Assembly (NCBI GenBank): GCA_903889245.1
Contig: CAISWQ010000054.1
Location: 1 to 64,000 of the forward strand
DNA: 64,000 bases
Direction of reading: 5' to 3'
From: an uncultured Lentisphaerota bacterium
GTDB lineage: Bacteria > Verrucomicrobiota > Kiritimatiellia > CAIQIC01
The notes under the pieces were generated by a model that saw nothing but the letters and a program-made list of their open reading frames with translations, searched no databases and had not been told where the DNA came from. The translations under genes were made by a program, and so were the position numbers. Positions 1,362 to 58,052 of this stretch are shown piece by piece (the first letter of the stretch is position 1; the number at the start of each line of letters is the position of its first letter).

Positions 1362-1440
1362 TTCCAAGGCTTGGAAAACTGAACCGTCAGTTTTTCCAAA
1401 CCTTGGAAAAAACGCGCGGCCGGGTTTCCCATCCTGGGAA
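1362..1440. repeat. TTCCAA-N3-TTGGAA palindrome array, 3 copies (rpsL-rpsG gap)
   Basis: Three 15-bp palindromic cores start at 1362 (TTCCAAGGCTTGGAA), 1394 (TTCCAAACCTTGGAA) and 1426 (TTCCCATCCTGGGAA). The spacing is exactly 32 bp each time. The first spacer is itself an inverted repeat (AACTGA-ACCG-TCAGTT). The right half of copy 1, the spacer and the left half of copy 2 can therefore pair as one long hairpin. The array fills most of the gap between two genes of one operon and has no T-tract, so it is unlikely to be a simple terminator. Confidence 0.9.
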
Positions 1441-1477
1441 CACGCCGCGCTGAACTGCGGTTGCGAGGAAGAACGAC

Positions 1478-1948
1478 ATGGCTAGAAGGCGCAGAGCGGA
1501 AAAACGGCCGATGACGCCCGACACGCGTTTCGGCAGCGAGCTGGTCGCGCGGCTCATCAATTGCATCATGGAACGTGGCAAAAAGTCCACGGCCGAGCGC
1601 ATCGTCTATGGCGCGTTCGACCAGCTCCAGCAGCTGGCCCAGCAGGACCCGATGCAGGTGTTCCAGCAGGCGCTCGACAACATCAAGCCGCAGCTCGAGG
1701 TCAAGAGCCGGCGCGTCGGCGGCGCGACCTACCAGGTCCCCATCGAGGTCAGCGCCGAGCGCGGCGTGGCCCTCGCCATGCGCTGGATCCTGGATTACGC
1801 CGGCGGCCGCAAGGGCGTCGGCATGAGCCGCGCGCTTGCGCTGGAACTGAATGACGCGTTCAAGAACACGGGCAACGCGATCAAGAAACGCGACGACACG
1901 CACAAGATGGCGCAGGCCAACAAGGCGTTCGCGCATTATCGCTGGTAA
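1478..1948 (+). CDS. rpsG: 30S ribosomal protein S7
   Basis: This 156-aa protein is the 30S head assembly initiator that binds the 3' domain of 16S rRNA. MARRRRAEKRPMTPD at the N-terminus and KSRRVGGATYQVPIEV in the middle are the hallmark S7 segments. The C-terminal KRDDTHKMAQANKAFAHYRW is also typical. A GAGGAAG Shine-Dalgarno precedes the ATG. The gene lies between rpsL and fusA, as in most bacteria. It is separated from rpsL by a palindrome array but is only 15 bp from fusA. Confidence 0.97.
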   Translation: MARRRRAEKRPMTPDTRFGSELVARLINCIMERGKKSTAERIVYGAFDQLQQLAQQDPMQVFQQALDNIKPQLEVKSRRVGGATYQVPIEVSAERGVALAMRWILDYAGGRKGVGMSRALALELNDAFKNTGNAIKKRDDTHKMAQANKAFAHYRW

Positions 1949-1963
1949 TTTTTGAGACGAGCA

Positions 1964-4099
1964 ATGGTCGCCGTGGTGGAACAACCGAAAGCCAAGCAGA
2001 CGCCGGCCGCGCCGCACGCGCGCGAAGCCGAGGGCCGTCGCCGCGCCTTGGCCAAGGTCCGCAACATGGGCATCGTCGCCCACATTGACGCGGGCAAGAC
2101 CACGGTCTCCGAGCGCATCCTGTTCTACGCGGGCCGCGTCCACAAGATGGGCGAGGTCCACGAGGGCAACACGGTGATGGACTGGATGGTGCAGGAACAG
2201 GAGCGCGGCATCACGATCACGAGCGCCGCGACCACGCTGTTCTGGCGCGACCACCAGATCAACCTGATTGACACCCCAGGCCACGTGGACTTCACCGTCG
2301 AGGTGGAGCGCAGCCTGCGCGTGCTTGATGGCGTCGTCGGCGTCTTCTGTGGCGTCGGCGGCGTGCAGCCGCAGTCGGAGACGGTGTGGCGGCAGGCGAA
2401 GAAGTATCACGTGCCGTGCCTCGCCTTCGTCAACAAGCTCGACCGCATGGGCGCCGACTTCGCGGGCGTCATCAAGCAGATGCGCGAGAAGCTCGCCGCG
2501 CCGGCTGTACCGGTGCAACTGCCGATGGGCCGCGAGGAGCAGTTCCAGGGCGTCATTGATTTGATCCGCATGCGCGCGCTGCGCTTCGACGAAGCCAGCA
2601 AGGGCGCGCACGTGGTCGAGGGCGACATCCCCGCCGACCTCGCCGCCGCCGCCGAGCAGGCGCGCGCGCTGATGATCGAGGCGGTCGCGGAGAAGGACGA
2701 GGCTGTCCTCGCCGCTTACCTCGAAAACCCCGACGTCGCCGAGCCGCTGCTCAAGGCCGGTCTCCGCCGCGCGACCATCGCCGGCACGCTGGTCCCGGTG
2801 CTGTGCGGCTCCGCGCTACGCAACAGGGGCGTGCAGCCGTTGATTGATGCCATCGTTGATTTTCTCCCGTCGCCGGTGGATGTGCCCGCGGTCGAGGGCC
2901 ATCACCCGAAGACCAAGGATGTGATCAAGCGCGAGGTCAGCGACTTCGAGCCCTTGAGCGCGCTGGTGTTCAAGATCGCCAACGACCCGTACGTCGGCAA
3001 GCTCGCCTTCGTGCGCGTCTATTCCGGCGTGCTCAAGAAGGGCGCGAACGTTTTCAATCCGCGCACCGCGAAGCGCGAGCGGCTGGGCCGCATCGTCGAG
3101 TTGCACGCGAACCACCGCGAGGACATCGAGGCCCTGTACGCCGGCGAGATCGGCGGCTTGGCGGGCCTCAAGCTGGCGACCACCGGCGACACGCTGTGTG
3201 GCGAGAACCAGCCGGTGGCGCTCGAGCGCATCGAATTCCCGGAGCCTGTCGTCGCGATGGCCGTCGAGCCCAAGACGCAGGCCGACCGCGAGAAGCTGCG
3301 CGACGCGCTCGCGGCGCTCGAGGGCGAGGATCCCACGTTCCGCATCTCGACGAACAAGGAAACCGGCCAACTGCTCATCAACGGCATGGGCGAGTTGCAC
3401 CTGGAAATCATCCGCGACCGGCTGGTGCGCGAGTTCCATGTGCAGGCGAATTCCGGCCGGCCGATGGTCGCGTACAAGGAAACCATCCGCGCGCCCGCCC
3501 AGGCCGAAAATCGGTTCGAGCGCGAGATCGGCGGACGCGGCCACTATGGCCATGTCGCGCTGGAAATCGCCCCAGCCGAGCGCGGTGCGGGCAACACGAT
3601 GGAGTGGGACGTTTCGCCGGAGAAAATCCCGCACGAGTTCCGCGACGCGGTGGAGCAGGGGATCAACGATGGCCTCATGACCGGCGTCGTGGGCAACTAT
3701 CCGCTGGTGGATGTGCGCGTGCGCCTCACCGGCGGCAGCACGCACCCGGTGGACGCCTCCGAGATCGCGTTCCGCTCGGCGGCGGTGATGGCGCTGCGCG
3801 ATGCCGCGCTGGCGGCCAACGCCGTGATGCTGGAGCCCATCATGAAGCTCGAGATCATCACGCCGGAGGAATACGTCGGCGACGTGCTCGGCGACGTGAA
3901 CGGCCGGCGCGGGCGCATCCGCGACATCGCGGCGCGCGAGGCGGCGCAGATCATCCGCGCCGAGGTCCCGCTCGCGGCGATGTTCGGGTACGCCACGCAG
4001 TTGCGCTCGCTCACCAAGGGGCGCGCAAGCTATTCGATGGAGCCGGGCCGCTTCGAGGTGGTGCCGGAATCGTTGCAGGCAGGTTTGATCAATCGGTAA
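1964..4099 (+). CDS. fusA: Elongation factor G
   Basis: This 711-aa translational GTPase drives ribosomal translocation. The G-domain motifs are all present: AHIDAGKTT (G1), ERGITI (G2), DTPGH (G3), NKLD (G4) and CGSAL (G5). Domains II-V follow, with the family signature GMGELHLEI in domain III and the domain IV segment around '[14 protein letters not shown]'. The start at 1964 gives an N-terminus of about 30 residues before the G-domain. A TTG twelve bases upstream is possible but has no better ribosome site. The gene continues directly into rpsJ; tuf does not lie between them. Confidence 0.96.
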
Positions 4100-4107
4100 A
4101 GGACAGC

Positions 4108-4416
4108 ATGAATCAGCAACGCATCAGAATTCGGTTGAAAGCCTACGATCACAAGGCGCTGGACGCGTCCGCGCTCGAGATCGTGGAGACCGCCAAGCGG
4201 ACGGGCGCCCGCGTGGCCGGACCGATCCCGCTGCCCACGCGCATCGAGCGCTACACCGTGAACCGTAGCGTTCACGCAGACAAAAAGTCCATGGAACAGT
4301 TTGAAGTGCGGACGCACAAGCGGCTGCTCGACATCATCGAGCCGACGGCGCGCACGGTGGACGAGCTCAAGAAGCTCAACCTCCCGGCCGGCGTGGACAT
4401 CACCATCAAAATCTGA
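4108..4416 (+). CDS. rpsJ: 30S ribosomal protein S10
   Basis: This 102-aa protein begins [15 protein letters not shown], an S10 N-terminus. It contains the conserved GPIPLPT loop and the '[12 protein letters not shown]' strand. It opens the S10 operon but lies only 8 bp after the fusA stop, so str and S10 genes appear to form one transcription unit. AGGACAGC just upstream of the ATG is the likely ribosome-binding site. In other bacteria S10 also joins NusB in antitermination complexes; nothing unusual is seen here. Confidence 0.96.
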
Positions 4417-4426
4417 AGGGCACGTC

Positions 4427-5065
4427 ATGCAAGCACTCATCGGTAAAAAACTCGGCATGACGCAGGTCTATGACGCGCAGGGCGTTCACGTTCCCGTGAC
4501 GGCGTTGCAAGTCGGTCCGTGCGTCGTGGTCCAGCTCAAGACCGTGGCCAAGGAAGGCTACGACGCCGCGCAGCTCGGCTTCGGCGAGCGCAAGGCGAAG
4601 AACGCGGGCAAGGCGCAGGAGGGCCACTGCAAGAAGGCCGGCGTCGCCCTGCAGCGCACGCTGCGTGAGGTTCAGCTCGACGCGGGCGAGAGCCTGAAGG
4701 TCGGCGACGTGGTCGGCGCGGCGCAGTTCAAGGACGTGACGTTTGTGGACGTGCTCGGCGTGACCAAGGGCCGCGGCTTCCAGGGCGTCGTCAAGCGCCA
4801 CGGCTTCGGCGGCGGCCCGGCCTCGCACGGCCACATGGCCCACCGGCGTCCGGGCTCGATCGGTAATCGCACGTGGCCGAGCCGCGTGTTCAAGAACCGG
4901 CGCATGGGCGGCCACATGGGCTTTGTGAACGTGACGACGCAGAACCTGAAGGTGGTGCAGGTGCGCGAAGAAGATAACGTCATCCTGGTGCGCGGCGCGG
5001 TGCCCGGCCCGACGGGCAGCATCCTGCTGGTGCGCAAGGCGATCAAGAAGGCGGCGAAGAAATGA
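4427..5065 (+). CDS. rplC: 50S ribosomal protein L3
   Basis: This 212-aa L3 begins MQALIGKKLGMTQVYD. It carries the conserved central loop (KGRGFQGVVKRHGFGGGPASH) that reaches towards the peptidyl-transferase centre, followed by HRRPGSIGNRTWPSRVFKN. The ATG was chosen over upstream in-frame codons because it matches the family N-terminus and sits 10 bp after rpsJ. Its stop overlaps the rplD start (ATGA), implying translational coupling. Confidence 0.97.
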   Translation: MQALIGKKLGMTQVYDAQGVHVPVTALQVGPCVVVQLKTVAKEGYDAAQLGFGERKAKNAGKAQEGHCKKAGVALQRTLREVQLDAGESLKVGDVVGAAQFKDVTFVDVLGVTKGRGFQGVVKRHGFGGGPASHGHMAHRRPGSIGNRTWPSRVFKNRRMGGHMGFVNVTTQNLKVVQVREEDNVILVRGAVPGPTGSILLVRKAIKKAAKK

Positions 5066-5706
5066 GCAAGTTGAACCTTTATACCGCGCAGGGCGAGAAG
5101 GCCGGCGAAGTGGAAGTCGCCGCTGCCGCGCTCGTGACCGACCGCGGCGAACAGGCGGTGCACGACGCCGTGGTGGCCCATCAGGCCAACCTGCGCGCGG
5201 GCACGCACAAGACGAAGAAGCGCGGCGAGGTCCGCGGCGGCGGCATCAAGCCCTTCAAGCAAAAGGGCACCGGCCGCGCGCGCGCCGGCTCCATCCGCTC
5301 CCCGATCTGGCGCGGCGGCGGCACGATCTTTGGCCCGCAGCCGAGGGATTACTCGCAGGGCCTCAACAAGCGCGTCGCGCGCCTGGCGTTCGCCCGCGCG
5401 ATGAGCGAGCGCATCGCCGAGGGCGCGGTGCTCGTCGTCGAGCGCTTTGCGCCGGCGCAGCCCAAGACGCGCCTGCTGGCCGAGTTGCTCAAGAAGCTTG
5501 GTGTGGCCAAGGGCGCGCTGCTCGTCAACGAGGCGAGCGATAAGAATCTGCTGTTGGCGGCCCGCAATCTCCCGCAGGTCGAGGTCGCGCAGGCGGCCGA
5601 CGTGAACACCTTCCAGGTGCTCCGCTATCCGCAACTGGTCGTCAGCAAGGCGGCGCTGGAGAAGATCGAACAACGCATGAAGAATCTGGGCCGGAGGACG
5701 GCATGA
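5062..5706 (+). CDS. rplD: 50S ribosomal protein L4
   Basis: This 214-aa L4 has the exit-tunnel extension [20 protein letters not shown] with the flanking basic residues expected of the family. In gammaproteobacteria L4 represses the S10 operon. No matching leader can be recognised here because rpsJ follows fusA without a gap. The gene overlaps rplC and rplW by 4 bp at each end, giving a tightly coupled L3-L4-L23 block. Confidence 0.96.
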
Positions 5707-5987
5707 AGGATCCGCGACTCATCATCAAGCGGCTGCTGCTGACCGAGAAGGGCACGCGCCTGACCGAGCAGCACAACCAATATCAATTCGACGTGATGCC
5801 CACCGCGAACAAGATCGAGATCAAGCAGGCGGTGGAAAAAATCTTCAACGTGAAGGTCGTCAAGGTCAACACGATGAACAAGCTCGGCAAGGCCAAGCGC
5901 CTGCGCACGATGAGCTACGGCCGCACGGCGGCGTGGAAGCGCGCGATCGTCACCCTCAAAGCGGGCGACAAGATTGACCTGACCTAA
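5703..5987 (+). CDS. rplW: 50S ribosomal protein L23
   Basis: This 94-aa L23 is the docking protein at the tunnel exit for trigger factor and SRP. The sequence runs LLTEKGT... [22 protein letters not shown]... [11 protein letters not shown], the standard L23 order. It is about the usual length of 95-100 aa. It starts inside the rplD stop (ATGA overlap). Confidence 0.95.
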
Positions 5988-5998
5988 GGGAGCGACGC

Positions 5999-6820
5999 AT
6001 GGGTATCAAGACATTCAAGCCGAATACAGCGAGCCTGCGGTTCACCGAACTCTCGGACTTCGCGGACATCACGAAGTCGCGCCCGGAGAAGTCGCTGCTC
6101 GTGCCGCTGAAGAAGAAGGCCGGCCGCAATTTCATGGGCCGCATCACGATCCGCCACCAGGGCGGCGGCCACAAGCAGCACATCCGCATCATTGACTTCA
6201 AGCGTGAGAAGCGCGTTCCGGCCAAGGTTGCCGCGATCGAGTACGATCCCGGCCGCACGGCCCGCATCGCGCTGCTGCACTACAAGGATGGCGAGAAGCG
6301 CTACATCCTCGCGCCGAACGGCCTCGCGGTCGGCACGCTGCTGGCGGCCGGCCCGGACGTCGAGCCGATCGTCGGCAACGCGTTGCCGCTCTCCGCGATC
6401 CCGCTCGGCCTCCCGATCCACTGTCTCGAGATGGTGCCCGGCCGCGGCGCGCAGATGGTGCGCACTGCCGGCATGGTCGCCACGATCATGGCGCGCGAGG
6501 GCGAGTATGCCCACGTCCGCCTGCCCTCGGGCGAGATCCGCAAGATTCACGTCAACTGCTACGCGACCATCGGCCAGGTCGGCAACCTCGAGCACGAGAA
6601 CGTCTCGCTCGGCAAGGCCGGCCGCAAGCGCTGGCTCGGCGTCCGCCCGACCGTCCGCGGCGTGGCGATGAACCCGATTGACCACCCGATGGGCGGCGGC
6701 GAAGGCCGCACCTCCGGCGGCGGCCACCCGGTGACGCCGTGGGGCCAGATCACCAAGGGCAAGAAGACGCGCAGCCGCAAGAAACCTTCCAAGAACCTGA
6801 TCGTGCAGAGGAGAAAGTAA
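5999..6820 (+). CDS. rplB: 50S ribosomal protein L2
   Basis: This 273-aa L2 is required for subunit association and peptidyl-transferase centre assembly. It carries the conserved [17 protein letters not shown]-like segment (here [17 protein letters not shown]) and the C-terminal [19 protein letters not shown]. The histidine in the latter is the strictly conserved one. GGGAGC precedes the ATG by a few bases. Length and sequence are normal. Confidence 0.97.
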
Positions 6821-6823
6821 GCC

Positions 6824-7108
6824 ATGGGACGTTCAATTAAAAAAGGTCCGTTCGTTGACGAGCATCTCCTCAAGAAGGTGCAGACCGCGGCCAAGACCGG
6901 CGACAAGAAGCCGATCAAGACCTGGTCGCGCCGCTCGATGATCCTCCCGGAGTTCATCGGCGTGAACCTCGCCGTGCACAACGGCAAGACTTTCGTGTCC
7001 GTGTACGTCACCGAGAACATGGTCGGTCATCGCCTCGGTGAATTCGCCCCGACGCGCACGTTCCGCAAGCACGGCGCGGCGACGGACAAGGTGGTGGCGC
7101 TCAAGTAA
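6824..7108 (+). CDS. rpsS: 30S ribosomal protein S19
   Basis: This 94-aa S19 begins [18 protein letters not shown] and contains [14 protein letters not shown] and the conserved [13 protein letters not shown] segment. It binds the 30S head together with S13. In nearly all bacteria rplV follows directly. Here an unrelated 194-aa reading frame intervenes, starting 11 bp after the rpsS stop. Confidence 0.97.
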
Positions 7109-7119
7109 GGGCGCGTGCG

Positions 7120-10315: not shown

Positions 10316-10393
10316 TTCCAGGGCTTGGAAAAAATCCCGTGAGATTTTCCAAGACTTGGAAAAAACAGCGTGCGCAGGTTCCAAGGTCTGGAT
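10316..10393. repeat. TTCCAA-N3-TTGGAA palindrome array, 3 copies (rplX-rplE gap)
   Basis: Cores start at 10316 (TTCCAGGGCTTGGAA), 10347 (TTCCAAGACTTGGAA) and 10379 (TTCCAAGGTCTGGAT, degenerate). The start-to-start distances are 31 and 32 bp. The first spacer has inverted ends (AATC...GATT). The array occupies the only sizeable gap in this part of the operon and ends 26 bp before the rplE start. No T-tract follows. Confidence 0.88.
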
Positions 10394-17016: not shown

Positions 17017-17094
17017 GTCCAGGGCTTGGAAACGTCCCCCGTGACTTTTTCCAAGGCTTGGAAAAAAGCAGGAAAAAATTTCCAAGGTTTGGAA
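17017..17094. repeat. TTCCAA-N3-TTGGAA palindrome array, 3 copies (rpsM-rpsK gap)
   Basis: Cores start at 17017 (GTCCAGGGCTTGGAA), 17049 (TTCCAAGGCTTGGAA) and 17080 (TTCCAAGGTTTGGAA), i.e. spacing of 32 and 31 bp. The first spacer contains GTC...GAC inverted ends. The array ends 41 bp before the rpsK start. As with the other ribosomal-operon arrays, it marks a gap inside a transcription unit rather than its end. Confidence 0.9.
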
Positions 17095-17134: not shown

Positions 17135-17725
17135 ATGGCTGAAGAAAAAGAACAGGAAAAACCGGAAGCGGCCAAGGTCCCGAAAGCCGAGAAACCGCCC
17201 AAGGCCGAGAAGGCCCCGAAGGCCGAAAAAGCCGACAAGGCCGAGAAGCCCGTCAAGGCCGAGAAGGCCGAGAAACCCGCCGCGGCGCCCGCCGCCGGCG
17301 CCGCGCCCGCGGCCGCCGGCACCGCGCCCGCCGAGGGCGAGGCCAAGGCCAAGGTCAAGAAGGTCAAGGGTGGCCGCGTGGTCCCGGTCGGCATCATCTA
17401 CGTGCGCGCCAGCTTCAACAACACCATCGTCACCGTCACCGACATGAAGGGCGCGACGATTGCGTGGAGCAGCGCGGGTCGCTGCCAGTTCAAGGGCTCG
17501 CGCCGCAGTACCGCCTACGCGGCGACCGTCGTCGCGCAGGAGGCGTCGAAGCAGGCCGTCGGGTTTGGCCTGCGCGAGGCCGAGGTGCGCGTGCAGGGAC
17601 CCGGCGCGGGCCGCGAGTCCGCGATCCGCGCGATCACCGCGGCGGGCATCACGATCAGTTCCATTGTGGATATCACCCCGATTCCGCACAACGGCTGCCG
17701 GCCGCCGAAGAAACGCCGCGTCTAA
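17135..17725 (+). CDS. rpsK: 30S ribosomal protein S11 with long N-terminal extension
   Basis: This is a 196-aa protein against a usual length of about 128 aa. The S11 domain begins near residue 75 ([22 protein letters not shown]) and is complete, including [20 protein letters not shown] and the C-terminal [18 protein letters not shown]. The first ~70 residues are a low-complexity tail of repeated K-A-E-K-P units followed by Ala/Pro runs. Those runs lie within continuous coding sequence and have an ATG with an upstream AGAGGTTGA. No other ATG or GTG with a clear ribosome site was noticed close to the domain, so the extension is probably translated. Confidence 0.93.
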
Positions 17726-20086: not shown

Positions 20087-20137
20087 GCAACAGCGGGCCG
20101 TTTTCCAAACCTTGGAAAACGGCCCGTTGCTTTTTGG
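20087..20137 (+). terminator. Intrinsic terminator of the ribosomal block, built on a palindrome core
   Basis: A 14-bp perfect stem (GGGCCGTTTTCCAA / TTGGAAAACGGCCC) with a 3-base loop is extended by GCAAC/GTTGC outside a 3-base bulge. It is followed by TTTTT. The centre is exactly the TTCCAA-N3-TTGGAA element (20103-20117), so the dispersed repeat forms the top of the terminator hairpin. Confidence 0.9.
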
Positions 20138-20797: not shown

Positions 20798-20866
20798 GGC
20801 GGGAGCTGTAGCTCCCGCCACAAGCAGCGGGGCCGGTGCTACGGCGCGGCAACGCCGCGCCCTCCA
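20798..20866. repeat. Two REP-like GC hairpins
   Basis: GGCGGGAGCTGTAGCTCCCGCC (20798-20819) is a near-perfect hairpin. GGCGCGGCAACGCCGCGCC (20843-20861) is an 8-bp stem with an AAC loop, followed by CTCCA. Copies of both types recur in this window (51844, 53216, 58121 and 58172). They occupy the first part of the gap after the PLD gene and have no following T-run. Confidence 0.75.
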
Positions 20867-20913
20867 GTGTTACGCGGTCCTGGCGGGCGGCGTGTCACGC
20901 CGCCGCGCGCCTT

Positions 20914-21054
20914 TTCCAAGTCTTGGAAAAATCGGCGCAATAATTTCCAAGGCTTGGAAAAAGTTCCGCGAGACCCGCCTTGACCAGAAGACTGCGGCGG
21001 GCAAGTTTTCCAATCCCTGGAAAAAACGGGGTGGGGCGGTTCCAATCCCTGGAA
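20914..21054. repeat. TTCCAA-N3-TTGGAA palindrome array, 4 copies
   Basis: Cores start at 20914, 20945, 21008 and 21040. Distances are 31, 63 and 32 bp, so one unit in the middle of the 32-bp grid is missing or decayed. The last two cores use the TTCCAATCCCTGGAA variant. The 333-bp gap between the PLD gene and the protease gene holds only this array, the two REP-like hairpins before it, and a GC-rich leader with a possible TAGATT -10 box at 21084. Confidence 0.88.
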
Positions 21055-36699: not shown

Positions 36700-36777
36700 T
36701 CCCAAGGCTTGGAAATGGTGAGGACCGGTTTTTCCAAGGCTTGGAAAAAACAACGGAAATATTTCCAAGCCTTGGAA
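36700..36777. repeat. TTCCAA-N3-TTGGAA palindrome array, 3 copies
   Basis: Cores start at 36700, 36732 and 36763 (32 and 31 bp apart). The first spacer contains GGT-GAGG-ACC as an inner inverted repeat. The array lies between the 5' end of the transglycosylase gene and the 3' end of the cation-efflux gene, both on the minus strand. Confidence 0.88.
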
Positions 36778-41296: not shown

Positions 41297-41343
41297 TTCC
41301 AAGGATTGGAAAGGTGAAGAGACGATTTTCCCAAGCCTTGGAA
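41297..41343. repeat. TTCCAA-N3-TTGGAA palindrome pair between convergent genes
   Basis: Cores start at 41297 (TTCCAAGGATTGGAA) and 41328 (TTCCCAAGCCTTGGAA), 31 bp apart. They fill the 70-bp gap between the ends of two convergent genes, so here the element lies at 3' ends rather than upstream of a start. It may act as a bidirectional transcript end. Confidence 0.85.
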
Positions 41344-44232: not shown

Positions 44233-44279
44233 TTCCTAAACTTGGAAGATACTATAGCGGTGTTATCCCAACCTTGAAA
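44233..44279 (-). promoter_or_regulatory. Candidate promoter overlapping two degenerate palindrome cores
   Basis: On the minus strand TTTCAA (44274-44279) and TATAGT (44251-44256) are 17 bp apart, with the kinase start 35 bp beyond the -10. A degenerate core TTCCTAAACTTGGAA (44233-44247) lies just downstream of the -10. A second relic, centred 32 bp away, overlaps the -35. The 146-bp gap to the divergent oxidoreductase gene also holds TTGACT at 44303 and a GC hairpin upstream of that gene. Confidence 0.35.
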
Positions 44280-44363: not shown

Positions 44364-45608
44364 ATGAGCGGGACGGTAAGTTATTCGCGGCGGGATTTCA
44401 TGGCCTTGGGCACGGGCGCGGCGTTGAGCGCAGCGCTGGTGGGCCAGGCGCAGACGGCGGCGCCGGCCGCGGCGCCGGTCATCACGCGCAAAATCAAGCT
44501 CGGCCTGATCGGCTGCGGTGGACGCGGCACGTGGATTGCAGCGCTGTTCAAGAAACACGGCGGCTACGACATCGCCGGCGTCGCGGATTATTTCCAGAGC
44601 CAGGCCGACCGCGCGGGCGAGAAGCTCGGCGTCGCGGCCGACAAACGCTTCAGCGGCCTCTCCGCTTACAAGCGCCTGATCGAGAGCGGCGTCGAGGCCA
44701 TCGCGATTGAGTCACCGCCCTATTTCCACCCGGAACAGGCGGCGGCGGGCGTCGCGGCGGGCAAGCACGTCTACTGCGCCAAGCCGGTCGCGGTGGATGT
44801 CCCCGGCTGCCAGAGCATCGCCGCCAGCGGCAAGCAGGCGACCGGGAAGAAGCTCTGCTTCCTCGTGGATTTCCAGTCGCGCTCCACCGACCTCTATATC
44901 GAGGCGCTCCAGCGCGTCCACAACGGCGCGATCGGCAACATCGCGTTTGGCGAGAGCACCTATCATGCGGAGTGCCCGTTCACGCGCTACTTCGACGAAC
45001 TGGGCAAAAAACCCAACGATCCCGAAATGCGCCTGCGCGCGTGGGGCCTCGACCGCGCGCTCTCCGGCGACATCATCACCGAGCAAAACATCCACACGCT
45101 CGACGTGATGAACTGGGTCATGACCAAGCCGCCGCTCGTCGCCACCGGCACCGGCGGCATCAACGCGCGGCCGAAGACCGTCGGCACGTGCTTCGATCAC
45201 TTCTCCGGCCACTTCGACTACGGCGACGGCCTGGGCTTCACCTTCAGCTCGCGCCAGATCGAAGGCCACGGCACCATCCCTGCCGGCATCCGCGTCCGCG
45301 CGTTCGGCAACAAGGGCGTGCTCGAAACCGAATACGGCGGCACGATCATGATTCGCGGCGCGGAGTTCTTCAAGGGCGGCAAGACCTCCGGCATCTACCA
45401 GGCCGGCGCCGAGGTCAACATCGCCGCGTTCTACCGCGACATCATCGCCGGCAACGCCACGAACGTCACGGTCGAGCCGAGCGTGCAGAGCAACCTGATC
45501 ACGATCCTCGGCCGCACCGCCGCCTACACCGGCGCGCCCGTCACGTGGGCCAAGCTCATCGCCAGCACCGACCGCCTCGAAGCCGACCTCAAGGGCCTGA
45601 AGGACTGA
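44364..45608 (+). CDS. Tat-exported Gfo/Idh/MocA family oxidoreductase
   Basis: This 414-aa protein has a twin-arginine signal (SRRDFMALGTGAALSAALVG) at the N-terminus. The Rossmann domain follows: IKLGLIGCGGRGTWIAALF, with VAGKHVYCAKPVAVDV matching the conserved 'GKHVxCEKP'-type motif (here Ala-Lys-Pro). The C-terminal alpha/beta domain contains 'DIITEQNIHTLDVMNWVM' with the likely catalytic His. It probably performs NAD(P)-dependent oxidation or reduction of a sugar or inositol outside the cytoplasm, with a tightly bound cofactor. Such Tat-secreted members are frequent in PVC bacteria. Confidence 0.88.
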   Translation: MSGTVSYSRRDFMALGTGAALSAALVGQAQTAAPAAAPVITRKIKLGLIGCGGRGTWIAALFKKHGGYDIAGVADYFQSQADRAGEKLGVAADKRFSGLSAYKRLIESGVEAIAIESPPYFHPEQAAAGVAAGKHVYCAKPVAVDVPGCQSIAASGKQATGKKLCFLVDFQSRSTDLYIEALQRVHNGAIGNIAFGESTYHAECPFTRYFDELGKKPNDPEMRLRAWGLDRALSGDIITEQNIHTLDVMNWVMTKPPLVATGTGGINARPKTVGTCFDHFSGHFDYGDGLGFTFSSRQIEGHGTIPAGIRVRAFGNKGVLETEYGGTIMIRGAEFFKGGKTSGIYQAGAEVNIAAFYRDIIAGNATNVTVEPSVQSNLITILGRTAAYTGAPVTWAKLIASTDRLEADLKGLKD

Positions 45609-45610
45609 CG

Positions 45611-45645
45611 AACATCGAACACCGAATATCCAACATCGAACATCG
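45611..45645. repeat. Heptamer tandem tract (GAACATC-type), 5 units
   Basis: Units GAACATC, GAACACC, GAATATC, CAACATC and GAACATC are in exact 7-bp register. The tract begins 2 bp after the stop of the oxidoreductase gene. The same unit recurs at 58057-58091. Confidence 0.88.
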
Positions 45646-45674: not shown

Positions 45675-45783
45675 TTCCAAGGCTTGGAAAAATCCGCGCG
45701 GAAATTTCCAGGCCTTGGAAAATTTGGGGTGAGATTTTCCAAGCCTTGGAAAAATGAACGGATCCGGTTTCCAATCCCTGGAA
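45675..45783. repeat. TTCCAA-N3-TTGGAA palindrome array, 4 copies, entering birA
   Basis: Cores start at 45675, 45706, 45737 and 45769 (31, 31 and 32 bp apart). Spacers 1 and 3 contain the palindromes TCCGCGCGGA and CGGATCCG. The third core ends 2 bp before the birA ATG, so its GGAA lies where a Shine-Dalgarno would be. The fourth core is inside the reading frame and encodes FQSLE. Confidence 0.92.
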
Positions 45784-48169: not shown

Positions 48170-48215
48170 TTCCAAGCCTCGGAAACCGCCGCGTGAAAAT
48201 TTCCAAGGCTTGGAA
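48170..48215. repeat. TTCCAA-N3-TTGGAA palindrome pair upstream of coaX
   Basis: Cores TTCCAAGCCTCGGAA (48170) and TTCCAAGGCTTGGAA (48201) are 31 bp apart, starting 4 bp after the kinase stop. The second core ends 18 bp before a good -35 hexamer. Confidence 0.87.
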
Positions 48216-52036: not shown

Positions 52037-52942
52037 ATGCAGATGAACATGAGCGGAATGTCGCGCCGCGAGGCGCTGGGCGCGCTGGGCCTGCTGGCGC
52101 TGTCGAGCCGGCTGGCGTGGGCGCAGGAAGCGAAGGGCGGGATCGCGCTGCAGCTCTACACCGTGCGCGACGCCGCGAAGAAGGACCTCGAAGGCACGTT
52201 GAAGAAGGCCGCCGACATGGGCTGGCGCTATGTGCAGTGGAGCGGCATGCCCAACCTGCCAGCCGACAAGATTCGCGCGGCGCTCGACGCGGCCGGTCTC
52301 AAGTGCATCGCGTGTCATACCAGCGTCGAGGCCTTCGAGAAGGATTTCGACAAGGAAGTCGCGTTCTGGAAGACCGTCGGCTGCAAGGATATCGGGCCCG
52401 GCGGCATGATGAAGGATTGCACCAAGGACCTCGCCGCGTGGCTCAAGGGCTGCCAGCGGCTCGACGAACTCGGCGCCAAGATGCGCGGCGCCGGCCTGCG
52501 CCTCATCTTCCACAACCACGGCATGGAGTTCGAGAAGTTCGCGGATGATCCGCGCACGAAGCACCAGATTCTGATGGACACCACCAAGCCGGGCAATCTC
52601 TACGCCGAGCTCGACATCGCTTGGGCGCACGCCGCCGGTGTGGATGTCCCCGCCTATCTGCGCGGCGCACTCAAGGGCCGCGTCAAGTGCGTCCACGCCA
52701 AGGACGTCATCACCGAGGCCGCGCCCGCTCCCGCCAAGCCCGCCAAGGGCAAGGCCAAGGGCGGCGGCAAGAAGCACACGCTTGTGCCGCTCGGCCAGGG
52801 CCAGGTGCCGTGGAAGGATGTCATCCCGGCCTGCAAGGACGCGGGCGTCGAGTGGTACATCTACGAGCAGGACAACGGCAAGGGCGAAGTCTGGGATTAC
52901 GTGAAGACCAGCTACGACTTCCTCTCGAAGCAGCCGATCTGA
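52037..52942 (+). CDS. Tat-exported sugar phosphate isomerase/epimerase-like protein
   Basis: This 301-aa AP-endonuclease-2-like TIM barrel has a Tat signal (MSRREALGALGLLALSS). Barrel motifs are IALQLYTVRDAAKKD, 'LIFHNHGMEFEKF' (metal His), LYAELDIAWAHAAGVD and 'RVKCVHAKD'. A Lys/Pro/Ala insertion (APAPAKPAKGKAKGGGKK) sits near the C-terminus. The role is likely isomerisation or epimerisation of a sugar or inositol outside the cytoplasm. AAGAGGAGCAACCG precedes the ATG. An intrinsic terminator follows. Confidence 0.87.
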   Translation: MQMNMSGMSRREALGALGLLALSSRLAWAQEAKGGIALQLYTVRDAAKKDLEGTLKKAADMGWRYVQWSGMPNLPADKIRAALDAAGLKCIACHTSVEAFEKDFDKEVAFWKTVGCKDIGPGGMMKDCTKDLAAWLKGCQRLDELGAKMRGAGLRLIFHNHGMEFEKFADDPRTKHQILMDTTKPGNLYAELDIAWAHAAGVDVPAYLRGALKGRVKCVHAKDVITEAAPAPAKPAKGKAKGGGKKHTLVPLGQGQVPWKDVIPACKDAGVEWYIYEQDNGKGEVWDYVKTSYDFLSKQPI

Positions 52943-52957
52943 CCTCTTGACCGCCTG

Positions 52958-53005
52958 AACGCGCGGCGTTTTCCAGGCCTTGGAAACGCCGCGCGTTTCT
53001 TTTCC
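52958..53005 (+). terminator. Intrinsic terminator with a palindrome core at its tip
   Basis: AACGCGCGGCGTTTTCCA pairs with TGGAAACGCCGCGCGTT (one bulged T) around the loop GGCCT, followed by TCTTTTCC. The tip is the TTCCAGGCCTTGGAA element (52971-52985). As after rplQ, gene-specific GC arms extend a repeat core. Confidence 0.88.
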
Positions 53006-53162
53006 GGACCCGGAAAAAACAGAGATCAGAGAGCAGCGGTCAGAGGTCAGTTTCCCTGGCCTTGAAAAAAAATCCGGTGAAACGCTCCAAGCCTTGGAAA
53101 AATTTCCGCGAGCTTTTCCAATGCTTGGAAATACCAAGGGCCCCGGTTTCCAATCCTTGGAA
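53002..53162. repeat. Palindrome array with an embedded heptamer tract
   Basis: Cores or relics start at 53002 (TTCCGGACCCGGAA, 31 bp after the terminator core), about 53053 (degenerate), 53085, 53116 and 53148. The last four are 31-32 bp apart. The irregular 51-bp step contains a heptamer tract at 53021-53048 (AGAGATC, AGAGAGC, AGCGGTC, AGAGGTC), as if it had inserted between units. The last spacer contains ACC...GGGCCC...GGT. Confidence 0.85.
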
Positions 53163-53189
53163 ACAGTAGCGGCGAACCATGGTCGCCGT

Positions 53190-53234
53190 CGGCGGGCATA
53201 GCCCGCCGCTACAGCGGCGCGGCGACGCCGCGCC
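53190..53234. repeat. Two REP-like GC hairpins
   Basis: CGGCGGGCATAGCCCGCCG (53190-53208) has an 8-bp stem and an ATA loop. GGCGCGGCGACGCCGCGCC (53216-53234) matches the type at 20843 and 51844 and is again followed by CTCCA. With the preceding arrays they fill the 388-bp gap; the last ~95 bp before the next gene are otherwise featureless. Confidence 0.75.
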
Positions 53235-53330
53235 CTCCATTTATTTCTGTCCACGCTTGGCGCGGGCAAGTCCACCTTGACTTTCCGGGTTGTTCCGTGA
53301 CAATGCCGCCGACTTTTTTGGCGGCGTCCC

Positions 53331-54362
53331 ATGAGCGATGCAACACCAACCCAGGGCGGCCCGACGCGAGCCTACGACCTCGCGGCGTGGGTGCTCATGG
53401 GGCTGGCGCTGTACGGCGTCATCCACCTGCGCCTGATCGCGGTCCTGATGGCGGGGCTGCTGGTCTTCCAACTCGTCCACATGCTCTCCGGCGTCGTGCG
53501 CGTGCCGCGCATGAACCACCGCGGCGCGAAGCTGCTGATCGTGGCCGTACTGGCCGCGGTCGTGGTGACGATTGTCGCGCTGCTCGTGCTGGGCAGCGCC
53601 GCCTTCCTGCGCCATGGCCCCGACAACCTCGCCGGCATGTTGACGCAGATGGCCACCGTGCTCGATGAACTGCGCGACATGCTGCCACCGGCGTTCGCGG
53701 CTTCCCTGCCGGCCGACGCCGACAGCATCCGGCAACACATCTCCGAGTGGTTCCGTTCCCATGCGGCCGAAATCCGCACGGTGGGCGAGCACACCATCCG
53801 TGTCATCGTGCATATGCTGATCGGCCTGATCCTCGGCGCGATGGTGGCGCTGCACGAGGTCTCGCCGCGCGCGCGGCCCGCGCCGTTCCTGCAGGCGCTG
53901 ACGCGGCGCACGGCGCGCCTGGCCGAGGCCTTCCGCCGCATCATCCTCGCGCAGGTGCCGATCTCCGCGATCAACACGGGCCTGACGGCGATCTACCTCG
54001 TCATCGTGCTGCCGTTGTTCGGCGTGGACCTGCCGTTCAAGAAGACGCTGATCGCCGTGACCTTCCTCGCCGGCCTGCTGCCGGTGATCGGCAACCTGAT
54101 CTCCAACACGGCGATCTTCCTCGTGAGCCTGCGGGTGTCCTTCGCGGTCGCGGCCGTGTCGCTCGGCTACCTCATCCTCATCCACAAGCTGGAATATTTC
54201 CTGAACGCGAAGATCGTCGGCACGCGCATCAACGCCAAGGCGTGGGAACTGCTGATCGCCATGCTGGCGTTCGAGGCCGCCTTCGGGATCGGCGGGCTGA
54301 TCATGGCGCCGCTGGTCTATGCCTATGTGAAGCACGAGCTGATGGAAGAAGGCGTGCTCTGA
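53331..54362 (+). CDS. AI-2E family (PerM/YdiK-like) membrane permease
   Basis: This 343-aa protein has about seven to eight membrane segments. The family-typical C-terminal region is LFGVDLPFKKTLIAVTFLAGLLPVIGNLIS followed by LEYFLNAKIVGTRINAKAWELLIAM and GIGGLIMAPLVYAYVK. The long extracytoplasmic or cytosolic loop between TM3 and TM4 (PDNLAGMLTQMATVLDELRDML) is also usual. Family members export AI-2 or act as ion antiporters; the substrate here is unknown. The stop overlaps the glycosylase start (TGATG). Confidence 0.82.
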   Translation: MSDATPTQGGPTRAYDLAAWVLMGLALYGVIHLRLIAVLMAGLLVFQLVHMLSGVVRVPRMNHRGAKLLIVAVLAAVVVTIVALLVLGSAAFLRHGPDNLAGMLTQMATVLDELRDMLPPAFAASLPADADSIRQHISEWFRSHAAEIRTVGEHTIRVIVHMLIGLILGAMVALHEVSPRARPAPFLQALTRRTARLAEAFRRIILAQVPISAINTGLTAIYLVIVLPLFGVDLPFKKTLIAVTFLAGLLPVIGNLISNTAIFLVSLRVSFAVAAVSLGYLILIHKLEYFLNAKIVGTRINAKAWELLIAMLAFEAAFGIGGLIMAPLVYAYVKHELMEEGVL

Positions 54363-54970
54363 TGCCGCGGCCGGCCGCGCTCGAGCATCTGGCCGCGCGC
54401 GATCTCAAGCTCGCCGCCCTTCTCGTCGGCCCGCCGTTCAAGGCCTATCGCCATCCCGACCTCTACCGCGACCTGCTCGAATCCATCGTCTCGCAGCAGC
54501 TCTCCATCAAGGCGGCGGCGACCATCTTCGGGCGTTTCCTCGCTCTGTTTCCCGGCCGCCAGCCCACGCCGCGCCGTGTGCTCGCCTTGAAGCTCACGCA
54601 GCTCCGCGCTGCCGGCCTCTCGCGGCAGAAGGCCGGCTACCTCCGCAACGTCGCCGCCTTCGCGTTGCGCCATGACGTGAGCCGCGCGGCGCTGCACCGT
54701 TTGAGCGATGACGAGGTCATCGCGCTGCTCACGCAGATCAAGGGCGTCGGCCGCTGGACCGCGGAGATGTTGCTGATGTTCCCGCTGGACCGGCACGATG
54801 TCTTGCCGCTGGACGACCTCGGCATCCAGCTTGCGATGAAGAAACTCTATGGCCTGCGCGGCCGCGGGCGCGGCCTCCACCGGCGCATGGTCGCGCTCGC
54901 CGAGGTGTGGCGGCCGCACCGCACGCTCGCCTGCAAGTACCTCTGGCGCTGGCGTTCCGGCCAGCGTTGA
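54362..54970 (+). CDS. DNA-3-methyladenine glycosylase II (AlkA-like, HhH-GPD)
   Basis: This 202-aa base-excision glycosylase has the helix-hairpin-helix LLTQIKGVGRWTAEMLLMF near residues 124-142. The catalytic Asp follows in 'DVLPLDDLGIQLAM'. RDLLESIVSQQLSIKAA is the conserved N-terminal helix. It lacks the AlkA N-terminal domain and the C-terminal Fe-S loop of EndoIII. It removes alkylated purines in homologues. It begins by one-base overlap with the permease gene. The 126-bp gap downstream shows no gene. Confidence 0.88.
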   Translation: MPRPAALEHLAARDLKLAALLVGPPFKAYRHPDLYRDLLESIVSQQLSIKAAATIFGRFLALFPGRQPTPRRVLALKLTQLRAAGLSRQKAGYLRNVAAFALRHDVSRAALHRLSDDEVIALLTQIKGVGRWTAEMLLMFPLDRHDVLPLDDLGIQLAMKKLYGLRGRGRGLHRRMVALAEVWRPHRTLACKYLWRWRSGQR

Positions 54971-55096
54971 TTCCAGCCGCTCTTCGTAGAAGTAGGGGCG
55001 GATTTCAGCCAGAAAACCATTGACAACATTGCCCTTCGAGGGCTATGTGTCCGCCGTTGTCCATCACGCCGGTCGGCGCGATGGGCATTTCCCTTT

Positions 55097-55804
55097 ATGC
55101 AACTGACGGTCAAAGATGTCGCGAAGCTGCTGAATCTGTCCGAGAAGACCATTTACCGGATGATTCAACGCGGCGAGATTCCGGTCCACCGCATCGGCGA
55201 ACAGTTCCGGTTCAACCGCACCGACCTGATGGAGTGGGCGACGACGAAACGTATGAACGTTTCGCCAGACATGTTCACCGAGCCAGACGAGGATGAGCAG
55301 GAACAGCACCGTGTTTCGGATGCGCTCGCCCGCGGCGGAATTTTTTACCGGCTCGATGGCAAGGACAAGGAAGGCGCGTTGCGCGCGCTCGTTCGCGTCG
55401 CCCATCTGCCGGGCGAGGTGGATCGCGATTTCCTGCTGAACCATCTGATCGCGCGCGAGGCGCTCGCCTCGACCGGCATCGGCGAGGGCATCGCGATCCC
55501 GCACGTCCGCAATCCGGTGATTGTGCCGGTGGATGCGCCGCTGATTGCGCTCGGCTTTCTGGAGCATTCGGTGGAATTCGCCGCGATTGATGGCAAGCCG
55601 GTCAATGTGCTGTTCCTGCTGTTCAGCCCGACCATCCGCCTGCATCTGCGCCAGCTCTCGCGTCTCGCCTACAAACTCGGCCAGCCCGCCGTGCAGGATG
55701 CGCTGAAGCGGCAGGCGCCACGCGAGGAAATTTTCGCGGCCATCCGCCGCATCGAGGATGAGCTTTATGCCCACGCTCATCCGGCGACTGGGGCGGGGAT
55801 ATGA
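55097..55804 (+). CDS. HTH-PTS EIIA fusion, regulator-like
   Basis: This 235-aa protein has residues 1-50 as an excisionase/MerR-like DNA-binding helix-turn-helix (LTVKDVAKLLNLSEKTIYRMIQRGEIPVHRIG). Residues ~75-230 form a fructose/nitrogen-type PTS EIIA domain. Its phosphorylatable His136 lies in 'GEGIAIPHVRN', the standard motif. It likely senses HPr/EI phosphorylation state and controls transcription (inference). It overlaps the first subunit gene of the Ehr-type complex by 4 bp, tying it to that operon. Confidence 0.85.
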   Translation: MQLTVKDVAKLLNLSEKTIYRMIQRGEIPVHRIGEQFRFNRTDLMEWATTKRMNVSPDMFTEPDEDEQEQHRVSDALARGGIFYRLDGKDKEGALRALVRVAHLPGEVDRDFLLNHLIAREALASTGIGEGIAIPHVRNPVIVPVDAPLIALGFLEHSVEFAAIDGKPVNVLFLLFSPTIRLHLRQLSRLAYKLGQPAVQDALKRQAPREEIFAAIRRIEDELYAHAHPATGAGI

Positions 55805-57777
55805 TCCTGCTGCTGCTCGCGCTGGCGTTATTGCTCGGCGGGGCGCTGTTCCCGCTGCTGCTCGTGCGCAATCCCAAGGCCGCAACCGCCGCTGGCGTCG
55901 CGCTCGCCGTCGCCGGCTCGCTCGCCGGGCTGGCCTCCGCCGTGCAAGGACTGCTCGGCGGCATTGAGCAAAAATTTCTGCTGCCGTGGACGCTGCCGCT
56001 CGGCGCGGTGCGGCTCGGCCTCGATCCGCTCTCCGCCTTTTTTCTCGTCCCGTTGTTCCTGCTCGGCGGCGTCTGCGCGCTCTACGGCCGCGGTTATCTT
56101 GGCCTCCGCCCGCGCGACGGCACGTCGTGGAGTTTCTACAACCTTCTGCTCGTCTCGATGGCCGTCGTCTTCACCGCGCGCGACGCCGTCCTCTTCGTCA
56201 TGGCGTGGGAGCTGATGGCCGTCACCTCGTTCGCGCTCGTCATCCACGAGCGCGAGCGCGACAGCGTGCGGCATGCGGGCTGGCTCTATCTCGCCGCGTC
56301 GCATCTGGGCCTGGCCGCGCTGCTCGCCGTCTTCTTCGGCTTGAGCCACGCCGCCGGTGGCACGCTCGACCTCGCCGCCTTCCGCGATGTGGTCCCCGCC
56401 TCGGGCGCGCTCGGTGGCCTGCTGTTCCTGCTCGCCGTGCTCGGCTTTGGCGCGAAGGCCGGCTTCCTTACGCTGCACGGCTGGCTGCCCGAGGCGCATC
56501 CCGCCGCGCCGAGCCACGTCTCCGCGCTGATGTCCGGCGTGCTCATCAAGACCGGCCTCTACGGCCTGCTCCGCGTGCTCACCTTCTTCAGCGCGTGGCC
56601 CGCGTGGTGGGGCGGCGTGCTGCTCGCGCTCGGCCTCGCCGGCTGCCTGTTCGGTATCTTGCAGGCGCTGACGCAGCAGGACCTCAAGCGCTCGCTCGCG
56701 TTTTCCAGCGTCGAGAATATCGGCATCATCGCGCTCGGCCTCGGCCTCGGCATGCTCGGCGCCGCGTGGCAGTTGCCCGCCGTCGCCGCGCTCGGCTTCG
56801 CGGGCGCGCTGTTGCACGTACTGAACCACGCGCTGTGCAAGGGCCTGCTCTTCCTCGGCGCGGGCGCCGTGCTGCACGGCGCCGGTACGCTGCGCCTCGA
56901 CCGCCTCGGCGGCCTGCTCAAGACGATGCCGCAGACCGGCGCGCTCTTCCTCTTCGCCGCCGCCGCGATCTGCGCGCTGCCGCCGCTCAACGGCTTCGCC
57001 AGCGAATTCCTGATCTACCTCGGCGCGTTCACCGGCGCGTGTCACGCCGAGGGCTGGGCCGGTGCGACCGGCCTGATCGTCATCGGCGGCCTTGCGCTGA
57101 CCGGCGGCCTGACGCTCGCCGCGTTCGCGCGCCTGACCGGCCTGGCCTTCCTCGGCGAACGCCGCGCCGAACATCCGCCGCACGAAGCTTCCATGGCGAT
57201 GCGCCTGCCGATGCTGCTGCTCGCGCTCGGCTGCGCGCTCGCCGGCCTGGGTGCGCCGTGGCTGATCCCGTGGCTCTTCCCGCGCCTGCTTGCCGGAACT
57301 TTTCCAGCGCTCAAGACGCTCGACGCCGCGCCGCTTGCCGGCGCCGCGCTCGGCCTGCGCTGGGTAGTGATCCTCGCCGCCGCGTTTGCGCTGCTCGTCT
57401 TGGTACTCGCGCTCCTCCGCCGCGCGCGCGTCCGCGCTGGCGGCGTGGCCGCCGCGGGTACGTGGGACTGCGGCTACGTCGCGCCCACCGCGCGGATGCA
57501 GTACACCGCGTCATCGTTCTCCGGCCCGCTCGCGCAACTGTTCCAGCCGTTCCTGCGCGCGCGCGCCGAGGGGAAACTTCCCGCCGGCCTGTTCCCCGCG
57601 CCCGTCCAGCAAAGCACGAAGTTGCGCGACGTCGCCACCGACTACGTCGCCGTCCCGCTCTTCCGCGCCATCGCCTGGCTCGCGCAGCAGGTCCGCTGGC
57701 TCCAGCACGGCCGCGTCCAGCTCTACGTGCTCTACATCGCCGTCACCCTGCTCGCGCTGCTGCTCTGGAAATTATGA
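55801..57777 (+). CDS. Ehr/hydrogenase-4-type membrane subunit B (NuoL/M-like antiporter)
   Basis: This 658-aa proton-translocating antiporter-like subunit of the HyfB/EhrL kind has about 16 hydrophobic segments. Conserved family segments include ELMAVTSFALVIHE (TM5 Glu), GFLTLHGWLPEAHPAAPSHVSALMSG (TM7-8 with Lys/His set), QDLKRSLAFSSVENIG and CALPPLNGFASEFLIY. The C-terminal extension contains WDCGY, typical of HyfB. It starts within the end of the regulator gene. A 496-bp repeat-filled gap separates it from the next subunit, the only large break in this operon. Confidence 0.9.
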   Translation: MILLLLALALLLGGALFPLLLVRNPKAATAAGVALAVAGSLAGLASAVQGLLGGIEQKFLLPWTLPLGAVRLGLDPLSAFFLVPLFLLGGVCALYGRGYLGLRPRDGTSWSFYNLLLVSMAVVFTARDAVLFVMAWELMAVTSFALVIHERERDSVRHAGWLYLAASHLGLAALLAVFFGLSHAAGGTLDLAAFRDVVPASGALGGLLFLLAVLGFGAKAGFLTLHGWLPEAHPAAPSHVSALMSGVLIKTGLYGLLRVLTFFSAWPAWWGGVLLALGLAGCLFGILQALTQQDLKRSLAFSSVENIGIIALGLGLGMLGAAWQLPAVAALGFAGALLHVLNHALCKGLLFLGAGAVLHGAGTLRLDRLGGLLKTMPQTGALFLFAAAAICALPPLNGFASEFLIYLGAFTGACHAEGWAGATGLIVIGGLALTGGLTLAAFARLTGLAFLGERRAEHPPHEASMAMRLPMLLLALGCALAGLGAPWLIPWLFPRLLAGTFPALKTLDAAPLAGAALGLRWVVILAAAFALLVLVLALLRRARVRAGGVAAAGTWDCGYVAPTARMQYTASSFSGPLAQLFQPFLRARAEGKLPAGLFPAPVQQSTKLRDVATDYVAVPLFRAIAWLAQQVRWLQHGRVQLYVLYIAVTLLALLLWKL

Positions 57778-57921
57778 CGACTCTTTCCCCATGCGGTGGT
57801 GAGTTTTTAACGCAAAGGCGCGAAGGCCGGACGGAAGGCGCAAAGCTGTCTCCGCTCTTTGCGTCTTGTGCCTTCTCTTCGCGCCTTCGCGTTGAAAATG
57901 TGCGTGGACGTCGCGGATCAT

Positions 57922-58052
57922 TTCCGAGCCTCGGAAAAGTTTTCCCAGCCTTGGAAAACTTTGGCCCTGACTTTTCCAATGCCTGGAAAAACCGGCGCTT
58001 CGCTTTTTCAATGCTTGGAAAAACTGGCGCTCCGCTTTTCCAATCCCTGAAT
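57922..58052. repeat. Palindrome array, 5 copies, inside the Ehr operon
   Basis: Cores start at 57922 (TTCCGAGCCTCGGAA), 57942, 57974, 58006 and 58038. After a first 20-bp step the spacing is 32 bp three times. The third and fourth spacers contain GCG-CTT-CGC and GCG-CTC-CGC inverted repeats. The last two cores are degenerate. A 7-8 bp AAGGCGCGAAGG/CGCGCCTTCGCG inverted stretch precedes the array at 57810-57893. Confidence 0.88.

What the first reader, a model, noticed from the sequence alone, without database searches (positions are those of the whole stretch)
1362..58052. A 31-32-bp-phased family of TTCCAA-N3-TTGGAA palindrome arrays in the intergenic gaps
About 35 copies of a 15-bp palindrome occur in the window, almost all outside genes. 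They are grouped in arrays of 2-5 (at 1362, 10316, 17017, 20914, 36700, 41297, 45675, 48170, 52971-53162 and 57922). Start-to-start spacing is 31 or 32 bp almost everywhere; one 63-bp step equals two periods. Spacer sequences differ between arrays but are often inverted repeats themselves (e.g. AACTGA-ACCG-TCAGTT). Each TTGGAA-spacer-TTCCAA can therefore fold as a hairpin, and the phase equals three DNA helical turns. This fits neither a classical REP nor a CRISPR. It suggests either a same-face protein-binding array (nucleoid or regulator) or a chain of RNA hairpins used as a genome-wide 3'/5' processing signal. I know of no description of such an element, but I cannot search.
Basis: seen in the sequence. 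Interest (0 to 1): 0.88.

Follow-up and report, generated by a model that had tools for sequence, protein, structure and literature searches.

The report
Phased palindrome arrays across bacterial genome
A little-studied class of bacteria (Kiritimatiellia) carries hundreds to thousands of short mirror-image DNA words, many lined up two or three turns of the helix apart, which look like docking sites for an unidentified protein that sits on one face of the DNA and may organise the chromosome.

Summary
TTCCAA-N3-TTGGAA occurs 16 times exactly in the window (0 expected) and 1339 times in the genome (reversed control 0). Neighbouring copies lie 31 or 32 bp apart; other spacings also fall on multiples of about 10.5 bp. 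The arrays occur across Kiritimatiellia and not in about 190 sampled genomes of other classes. Sister genera use other 'dialects' (TTCCAC/T..., TTCCAT...) with the same two- or three-turn spacing.

Palindromes stay conserved at orthologous sites while spacers drift (82% versus 53% identity). The two arms do not compensate each other, and palindromes have arisen by point substitution inside a gene. This supports half-sites for a dimeric, cooperatively binding DNA protein. It argues against RNA hairpins, a transposed repeat or a CRISPR. The claim that spacers are themselves inverted repeats fails.

The geometry matches Lrp/FFRP-type arrays, but the one conserved Lrp does not look like the binder. 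The protein is unidentified. A chromosome-architecture role is my best guess; a DNA-uptake signal is the main rival, because ComEC is missing where the sites have decayed in this family. No description was found in the papers held here.

The parts
1362..1440 (.). Array of 3 palindromes (1362, 1394, 1426; spacing 32, 32) between rpsL and rpsG; the other three species of the genus have two units here
10316..10393 (.). Array of 3 palindromes (10316, 10347, 10379) between rplX and rplE; G023 has two units, G155 and G086 decayed copies
17017..17094 (.). Array of 3 palindromes (17017, 17049, 17080) between rpsM and rpsK; orthologous array in G155, G086 and G023 with diverged spacers
20103..20117 (.). 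Single palindrome forming the top of a long GC-rich hairpin followed by T-run (terminator-like)
20914..21054 (.). Array of 4 palindromes (20914, 20945, 21008, 21040); the 63-bp step is two periods
36700..36777 (.). Array of 3 palindromes (36700, 36732, 36763) between two minus-strand genes
41297..41343 (.). Array of 2 palindromes in a convergent gap
44233..44247 (.). Single 1-mismatch copy in a divergent gap
45675..45783 (.). Array of 4 palindromes (45675, 45706, 45737, 45769) that runs across the start codon (45754) of a BPL_LplA_LipB-family gene; the last two units are recognisable, partly decayed, in G155, G086 and G023
48170..48215 (.). Array of 2 palindromes upstream of a type III pantothenate kinase gene; no recognisable array in G155 or G086
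52971..52985 (.). Single palindrome at the top of a GC-rich hairpin followed by T-run
53085..53162 (.). Array of 3 palindromes (53085, 53116, 53148); no array at this place in G155 or G086
57922..58052 (.). Array of about 5 palindromes (57922, 57942, 57974, 58006 and a decayed copy at 58038; first step 20 bp, about two turns); G155 has a 73-bp gap here instead of 525 bp

Best explanation
Each TTTTCCAA-GSC-TTGGAAAA palindrome is the site of one dimer of a helix-turn-helix-type DNA-binding protein. [quoted passage not shown] With well over a thousand such sites, mostly in gaps between genes and without orientation preference, the protein most likely works as a sequence-specific architectural (nucleoid) protein that marks gene boundaries, rather than as a classical regulator of single promoters. 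Sister lineages use other base pairs at the inner position but keep the spacing, so the protein's specificity has drifted while its oligomer geometry has not. Shown here: the sites, phasing, half-site independence, constraint, in-place origin by substitution, class restriction, dialects. Inferred: the existence of the protein, dimer and cooperative binding, DNA wrapping and the architectural role. The protein itself is not identified.
For: Spacing: 31/32 bp almost exclusively in this genome; remaining spacings (20, 42, 52, 53, 84, 104, 115, 126) also fall in phase with 10.5 bp (Rayleigh p about 7e-4 after removing multiples of 31/32). Dialect arrays in other genera use 22 and 30-32 bp. Protein-like half-sites: doubly deviant arms are rarer than expected (2 against 7.4; 4 against 10.1) and not compensatory. 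Constraint: orthologous arrays in four species keep 82% identity in palindromes, 53% in spacers. Origin by substitution: in the L136 ORF two palindromes 32 bp apart arose by point changes in a stretch of equal length in G148 (72 nt each). In other ORFs the 31/32 spacing, not a multiple of 3, is kept in all three frames. No tandem copying: 0 of 92 adjacent spacer pairs are similar. No orientation preference: 4.0, 3.8 and 3.9 sites per kb in codirectional, convergent and divergent gaps. Literature: Lrp-family sites occur as clusters centred two or three helical turns apart on one face (PMC2995911).
Against: No protein has been linked to the sites. The only Lrp/AsnC protein in this genome has an HTH that evolves faster than its other domain within the genus (67-75% against 87-90% identity in five of six species pairs), a recognition helix not shared among genomes with the same palindrome, and residues that do not track the dialects. 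In genus g53 (G120) the sites are mostly unphased singletons and two thirds lie in coding sequence, so phasing is not universal. Copies are closer to perfect than simple protein recognition needs: most sites in register have 0-1 mismatches, few have 2-3; that hints at molecular drive. The first palindrome often starts within 20 bp of a stop codon (71 cases), which a pure nucleoid role does not predict. An in vivo role cannot be tested here.
Confidence: 0.55

Rival explanations
1. A DNA-uptake (self-recognition) signal comparable to neisserial DUS. A surface or periplasmic receptor prefers DNA with the palindrome, and biased uptake plus recombination enriches near-perfect copies genome-wide. 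The dialects would then be species-recognition codes.
For: In this family ComEC is found in the site-rich G000, G155 and G023 (1339, 789, 853 copies) and not in G086 (271, with decayed arrays), G148 (7) or G162 (3). Most copies are near-perfect. Sites arise by substitution in coding DNA, are dispersed coding singletons in genus g53, and have dialects.
Against: The sites are perfect palindromes in helically phased arrays, which a linear uptake signal does not need. ComEC is near-universal in the class (179 of 193), including many genomes without sites. The within-family pattern rests on six draft genomes and about two losses, and assembly gaps are possible.
Confidence: 0.17
2. Local gene-level control: the arrays are operators, insulators or roadblock terminators placed at gene ends and promoters by a regulator acting gene by gene.
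For: The first palindrome lies within 20 bp of a stop codon in 71 cases. Arrays sit between ribosomal protein genes in all four species of the genus.
Against: Density is the same in convergent, divergent and codirectional gaps. Arrays lie within ribosomal operons and inside coding sequence. Some positions are empty in the nearest relatives.
Confidence: 0.13
3. A REP/MITE-like mobile repeat that spreads by transposition.
For: High copy number with large differences between close relatives. A few near-identical array pairs exist (L158). Photolyase and G148 TrpF carry about 29-34 extra residues around their arrays.
Against: Spacers are mostly unrelated between and within arrays. RAYT/Y1 transposases do not track copy number: two weak hits in the own genome, none in some rich genomes, up to 21 in genomes without sites. 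The palindromes in the L136 ORF arose by substitution without added length.
Confidence: 0.06
4. A chain of RNA hairpins used for transcript processing or termination.
For: Each palindrome can form a 6-8 bp stem with a 3-nt loop. Two copies (20103, 52971) sit at the top of terminator-like hairpins.
Against: No compensatory changes and no G-U strand bias, no spacer pairing, no orientation preference, only 1 of 58 singletons is an extended hairpin, no Rfam match.
Confidence: 0.03

Closest known systems
Lrp/AsnC (FFRP) operator arrays, e.g. archaeal Ss-LrpB and FL11 (PMC2995911)
   Same: Short palindromes in clusters, centre-to-centre two or three helical turns, same DNA face; DNA bending or wrapping is known for that family
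   Different: More than 1300 near-perfect copies genome-wide instead of a few degenerate clusters; the class's only conserved Lrp does not behave like the binder
HIP1 highly iterated palindrome of cyanobacteria (PMC4390886)
   Same: Hundreds to thousands of copies of one palindrome, lineage-specific replacement by alternative versions, unproven function
   Different: HIP1 is an 8-bp word tied to DNA methyltransferases; here the palindrome is 15-19 bp, about 28 times denser between genes than in them in this genome (from counts), and helically phased
DNA uptake sequences (DUS) of Neisseriaceae (PMC2397512, PMC3630211)
   Same: High-copy near-perfect word with dialects, here also created in coding DNA; ComEC pattern within this family
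   Different: Palindromic and phased; uptake not tested; many ComEC-positive genomes lack it
REP/BIME elements with RAYT transposases (PMC2817692)
   Same: High-copy extragenic palindromes, sometimes clustered
   Different: No link to RAYT, no shared spacers, origin by substitution shown at one locus

Membership tests
Lrp/AsnC-type operator arrays | Palindromic sites spaced two or three helical turns on one face | tested here: met
   31/32 bp in this genome; 22 and 30-32 bp in dialect genera
Lrp/AsnC-type operator arrays | Bound by an Lrp/AsnC-family protein | tested here: inconclusive
   61 of 62 genomes with >=10 sites have one (103 of 131 others do too), but its HTH is variable and does not track dialects; binding not testable
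REP/BIME (RAYT-linked) | Associated REP-type tyrosine (Y1) transposase | tested here: not met
   No relation between PF01797 hits and copy number
REP/BIME (RAYT-linked) | Repeat copies related along their full length | tested here: not met
   Spacers mostly unrelated between and within arrays, apart from a few near-identical pairs
CRISPR | Long identical repeats with unique spacers in one or a few loci beside cas genes | tested here: not met
   15-19-bp sites, 16-17-bp spacers, 202 separate places in 853 kb; cas genes were not searched for
DNA uptake sequence (DUS/USS) | High-copy near-perfect word in a genome with a DNA-uptake channel | tested here: inconclusive
   ComEC tracks copy number within the family but not across the class
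DNA uptake sequence (DUS/USS) | Increases uptake of DNA | not testable with these tools
   Needs a culture and a transformation assay
HIP1-like iterated palindrome | Dedicated DNA methyltransferase for the word | not tested
   No methyltransferase search was made
RNA hairpin/terminator family | Compensatory base changes in the stem | tested here: not met
   Doubly deviant arms rarer than chance
Rfam families | Match to a curated RNA family | tested here: not met
   No gathering-threshold match in the window

The most novel reading that the evidence does not exclude
A class-wide bacterial 'positioning code': a wrapping DNA-binding protein whose two- or three-turn register is written into the gaps between genes of whole genomes by selection, even through coding sequence, with lineage-specific sequence dialects that co-evolve with the protein.
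Probability: 0.35. Interest if true: 0.88.

Novelty: new variant of a known kind. Interest (0 to 1): 0.76.

Why it matters
Most bacterial nucleoid proteins bind loosely or at degenerate sites. Here a high-information, helically phased site is repeated more than a thousand times and has changed sequence between sister genera while keeping its spacing. That gives a natural experiment on how a global DNA-binding protein and its sites co-evolve, and it predicts a protein that could be fished out with a single DNA oligo. If it turns out to be an uptake signal, it would be an uptake code in a phylum for which I know of none.

Tried and rejected
RAYT/Y1 transposase as driver: no relation to copy number. 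The class's Lrp as binder: near-universal, but HTH variable and not dialect-linked; its gene has arrays just upstream in only two (G089, G081) of eleven tested genomes with >=69 copies. Tandem duplication as the way arrays grow: adjacent spacers never similar. Spacer hairpins: rejected. Singletons as hidden terminators: only 1 of 58. DnaA box/origin reading of the TTTTCCACA dialect in G066: the array lies between genes that look, by eye, like gpmI and yggU, with no dnaA beside it. Other palindromic words in genomes without sites: none found in G062, G058, G119 or G011. Viral carriage: only four IMG/VR stretches, in three contigs. Literature: no held paper describes it. From memory only, the Kiritimatiella glycovorans genome paper (Spring et al. 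2016, ISME J) may mention intergenic repeats; it is not held, so this is unverified and would lower the novelty.
Full report
Observation. TTCCAANNNTTGGAA occurs 16 times exactly and 37 times with up to two mismatches in the window, where shuffles give 0 and 0.9. The whole genome (5.26 Mb, 125 contigs, 97% complete) has 1339 exact copies and none of the reversed control. In 853 kb of it I called 646 genes (86% coding) and found 456 copies at up to two mismatches: 202 separate places, of which 58 are singletons and 144 hold two to six copies. Consecutive spacings are 31 bp (155) and 32 bp (79), with almost nothing at 30 or 33. Of 214 exact copies, 175 are outside genes, although only 14% of the sequence is. 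The consensus is TTTTCCAAGSCTTGGAAAA.

Not RNA, not spacer hairpins. Spacer halves pair no better overall than spacers re-paired at random, apart from the A/T edges that belong to the palindrome, and slightly worse at some positions. If the palindrome acted as an RNA stem, changes in one arm should be compensated in the other. Instead doubly deviant pairs are rarer than expected at the two most variable positions (2 against 7.4, 4 against 10.1), and there is no strand bias toward G-U tolerance (32 against 37). Density is the same in codirectional, convergent and divergent gaps (4.0, 3.8, 3.9 per kb). Only 1 of 58 singletons is an extended hairpin. This is the pattern of two half-sites contacted by a protein dimer, where one weak half is tolerated and two are not.

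Phasing. Besides 31/32, the remaining spacings (20, 42, 52, 53, 84, 104, 115, 126) fall on multiples of 10.5 bp; after removing everything related to 31/32 the Rayleigh p is about 7e-4. In sister genera with other dialects the spacings are 22 and 30-32. Two or three turns is the spacing reported for Lrp-family clusters (PMC2995911).

Selection and origin. The arrays between rpsL-rpsG, rplX-rplE and rpsM-rpsK are at the same places in four species of the genus. Palindrome positions are 82% identical, spacers 53%, coding sequence 86%. The palindrome columns were chosen by having a site in at least one species, which favours them somewhat. Number of units differs by whole 31-33-bp steps, yet adjacent spacers are never similar (0 of 92 pairs at 12 or more identities), so arrays do not grow by simple tandem duplication. 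In an ORF on L136 two palindromes 32 bp apart lie inside the reading frame. The ortholog in the site-poor genus (G148) has the same length there and near-matches such as CTCCAAGGCCTGGAC, while G023 has TTCCAAGGCTTGGAA. The palindromes therefore arose by substitution in place. Other ORFs (photolyase, NuoG, GH51) carry arrays in all three reading frames with the 31/32 register kept, so the constraint is on DNA, not protein. Photolyase and the TrpF of G148 have about 29-34 extra residues around the array compared with solved relatives, so added length also occurs. Some arrays are absent in the nearest relatives (57922 and 53085).

Distribution. In the class, 102 of 193 genomes have at least one copy, from 1 to 3044, with large differences even within a genus. 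Doublets are absent from about 190 sampled genomes of other classes in the phylum. With the looser core TTCCA-N5-TGGAA, family f3 genomes that have no TTCCAA copies carry mostly 150-365 (controls 0-5). Samples show TTCCAC/T-N3-G/ATGGAA in g6 and g8 and TTCCAT-N3-ATGGAA in G026, with the same spacing. In genus g53 (G120) the sites are mostly singletons, 21 of 32 exact copies lie in called genes and phasing is lost; recomputed from those counts, density is still about four times higher between genes. The enrichment figures printed are wrong because of a bug in my script and are not used.

What binds? The own genome has one Lrp/AsnC protein. It is near-universal in the class (164 of 193), including genomes without sites. 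Within the genus its HTH evolves faster than its other domain, and its recognition helix does not follow the dialects. I therefore do not name it as the binder. RAYT transposases do not track copy number. ComEC is present in G000, G155 and G023 but not found in G086, G148 and G162, the members of the family whose arrays are decayed or missing. This favours an uptake signal, but it rests on about two losses in draft genomes, and ComEC is otherwise near-universal (179 of 193).

Judgement. That these are sites of a dimeric, phase-sensitive DNA-binding protein I hold at about 0.85; with an architectural main role, as stated, at 0.55. Uptake is the chief rival (0.17). The unusually perfect copies, the closeness to stop codons (71 first palindromes within 20 bp), and the way new units are gained remain unexplained.

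Novelty. No held paper describes the element and Rfam has no match in the window. The kind of thing (dispersed palindromic protein sites) is known; the scale, phasing and dialects are new to me.

Noticed in passing
window 45600-45640, 53010-53055, 57808-57900, 58055-58095, 58205-58250: Other simple intergenic repeats beside the arrays: (GAACATCGAACACC)n, (GGTCAGAGGTCAG)n, CAGGTTTCAGGTTTC, and a long inverted repeat built on AACGCAAAGGCGCGAAGG.
   Followed up: no
window 20842-20905: GC-rich sequence left of the 20914 array that recurs elsewhere in G086 with 25-26-bp exact matches.
   Followed up: no
L155:15015-16451: DNA photolyase with a five-unit array in frame in its interdomain linker, about 29 extra residues compared with 4u63.
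   Followed up: partly
L166 (G148:C131): TrpF with an in-frame two-unit array and about 34 extra residues, in a genome with only 7 copies.
   Followed up: partly
G011:C1:1409676-1410500: The ComEC match in this two-contig genome contains three in-frame TAG codons; possible TAG reassignment or a pseudogene.
   Followed up: no
L236-L239 (IMG/VR contigs): Three viral contigs carry phased arrays; prophages or misassigned host pieces.
   Followed up: no
window 17135-17725: Ribosomal protein S11 with a long Lys/Ala/Pro-rich N-terminal extension (S11 domain starts at residue 86).
   Followed up: no
L063: A contig labelled Firmicutes (ADurb.Bin467) carries a Kiritimatiellia-type array; probably mislabelled.
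   Followed up: no
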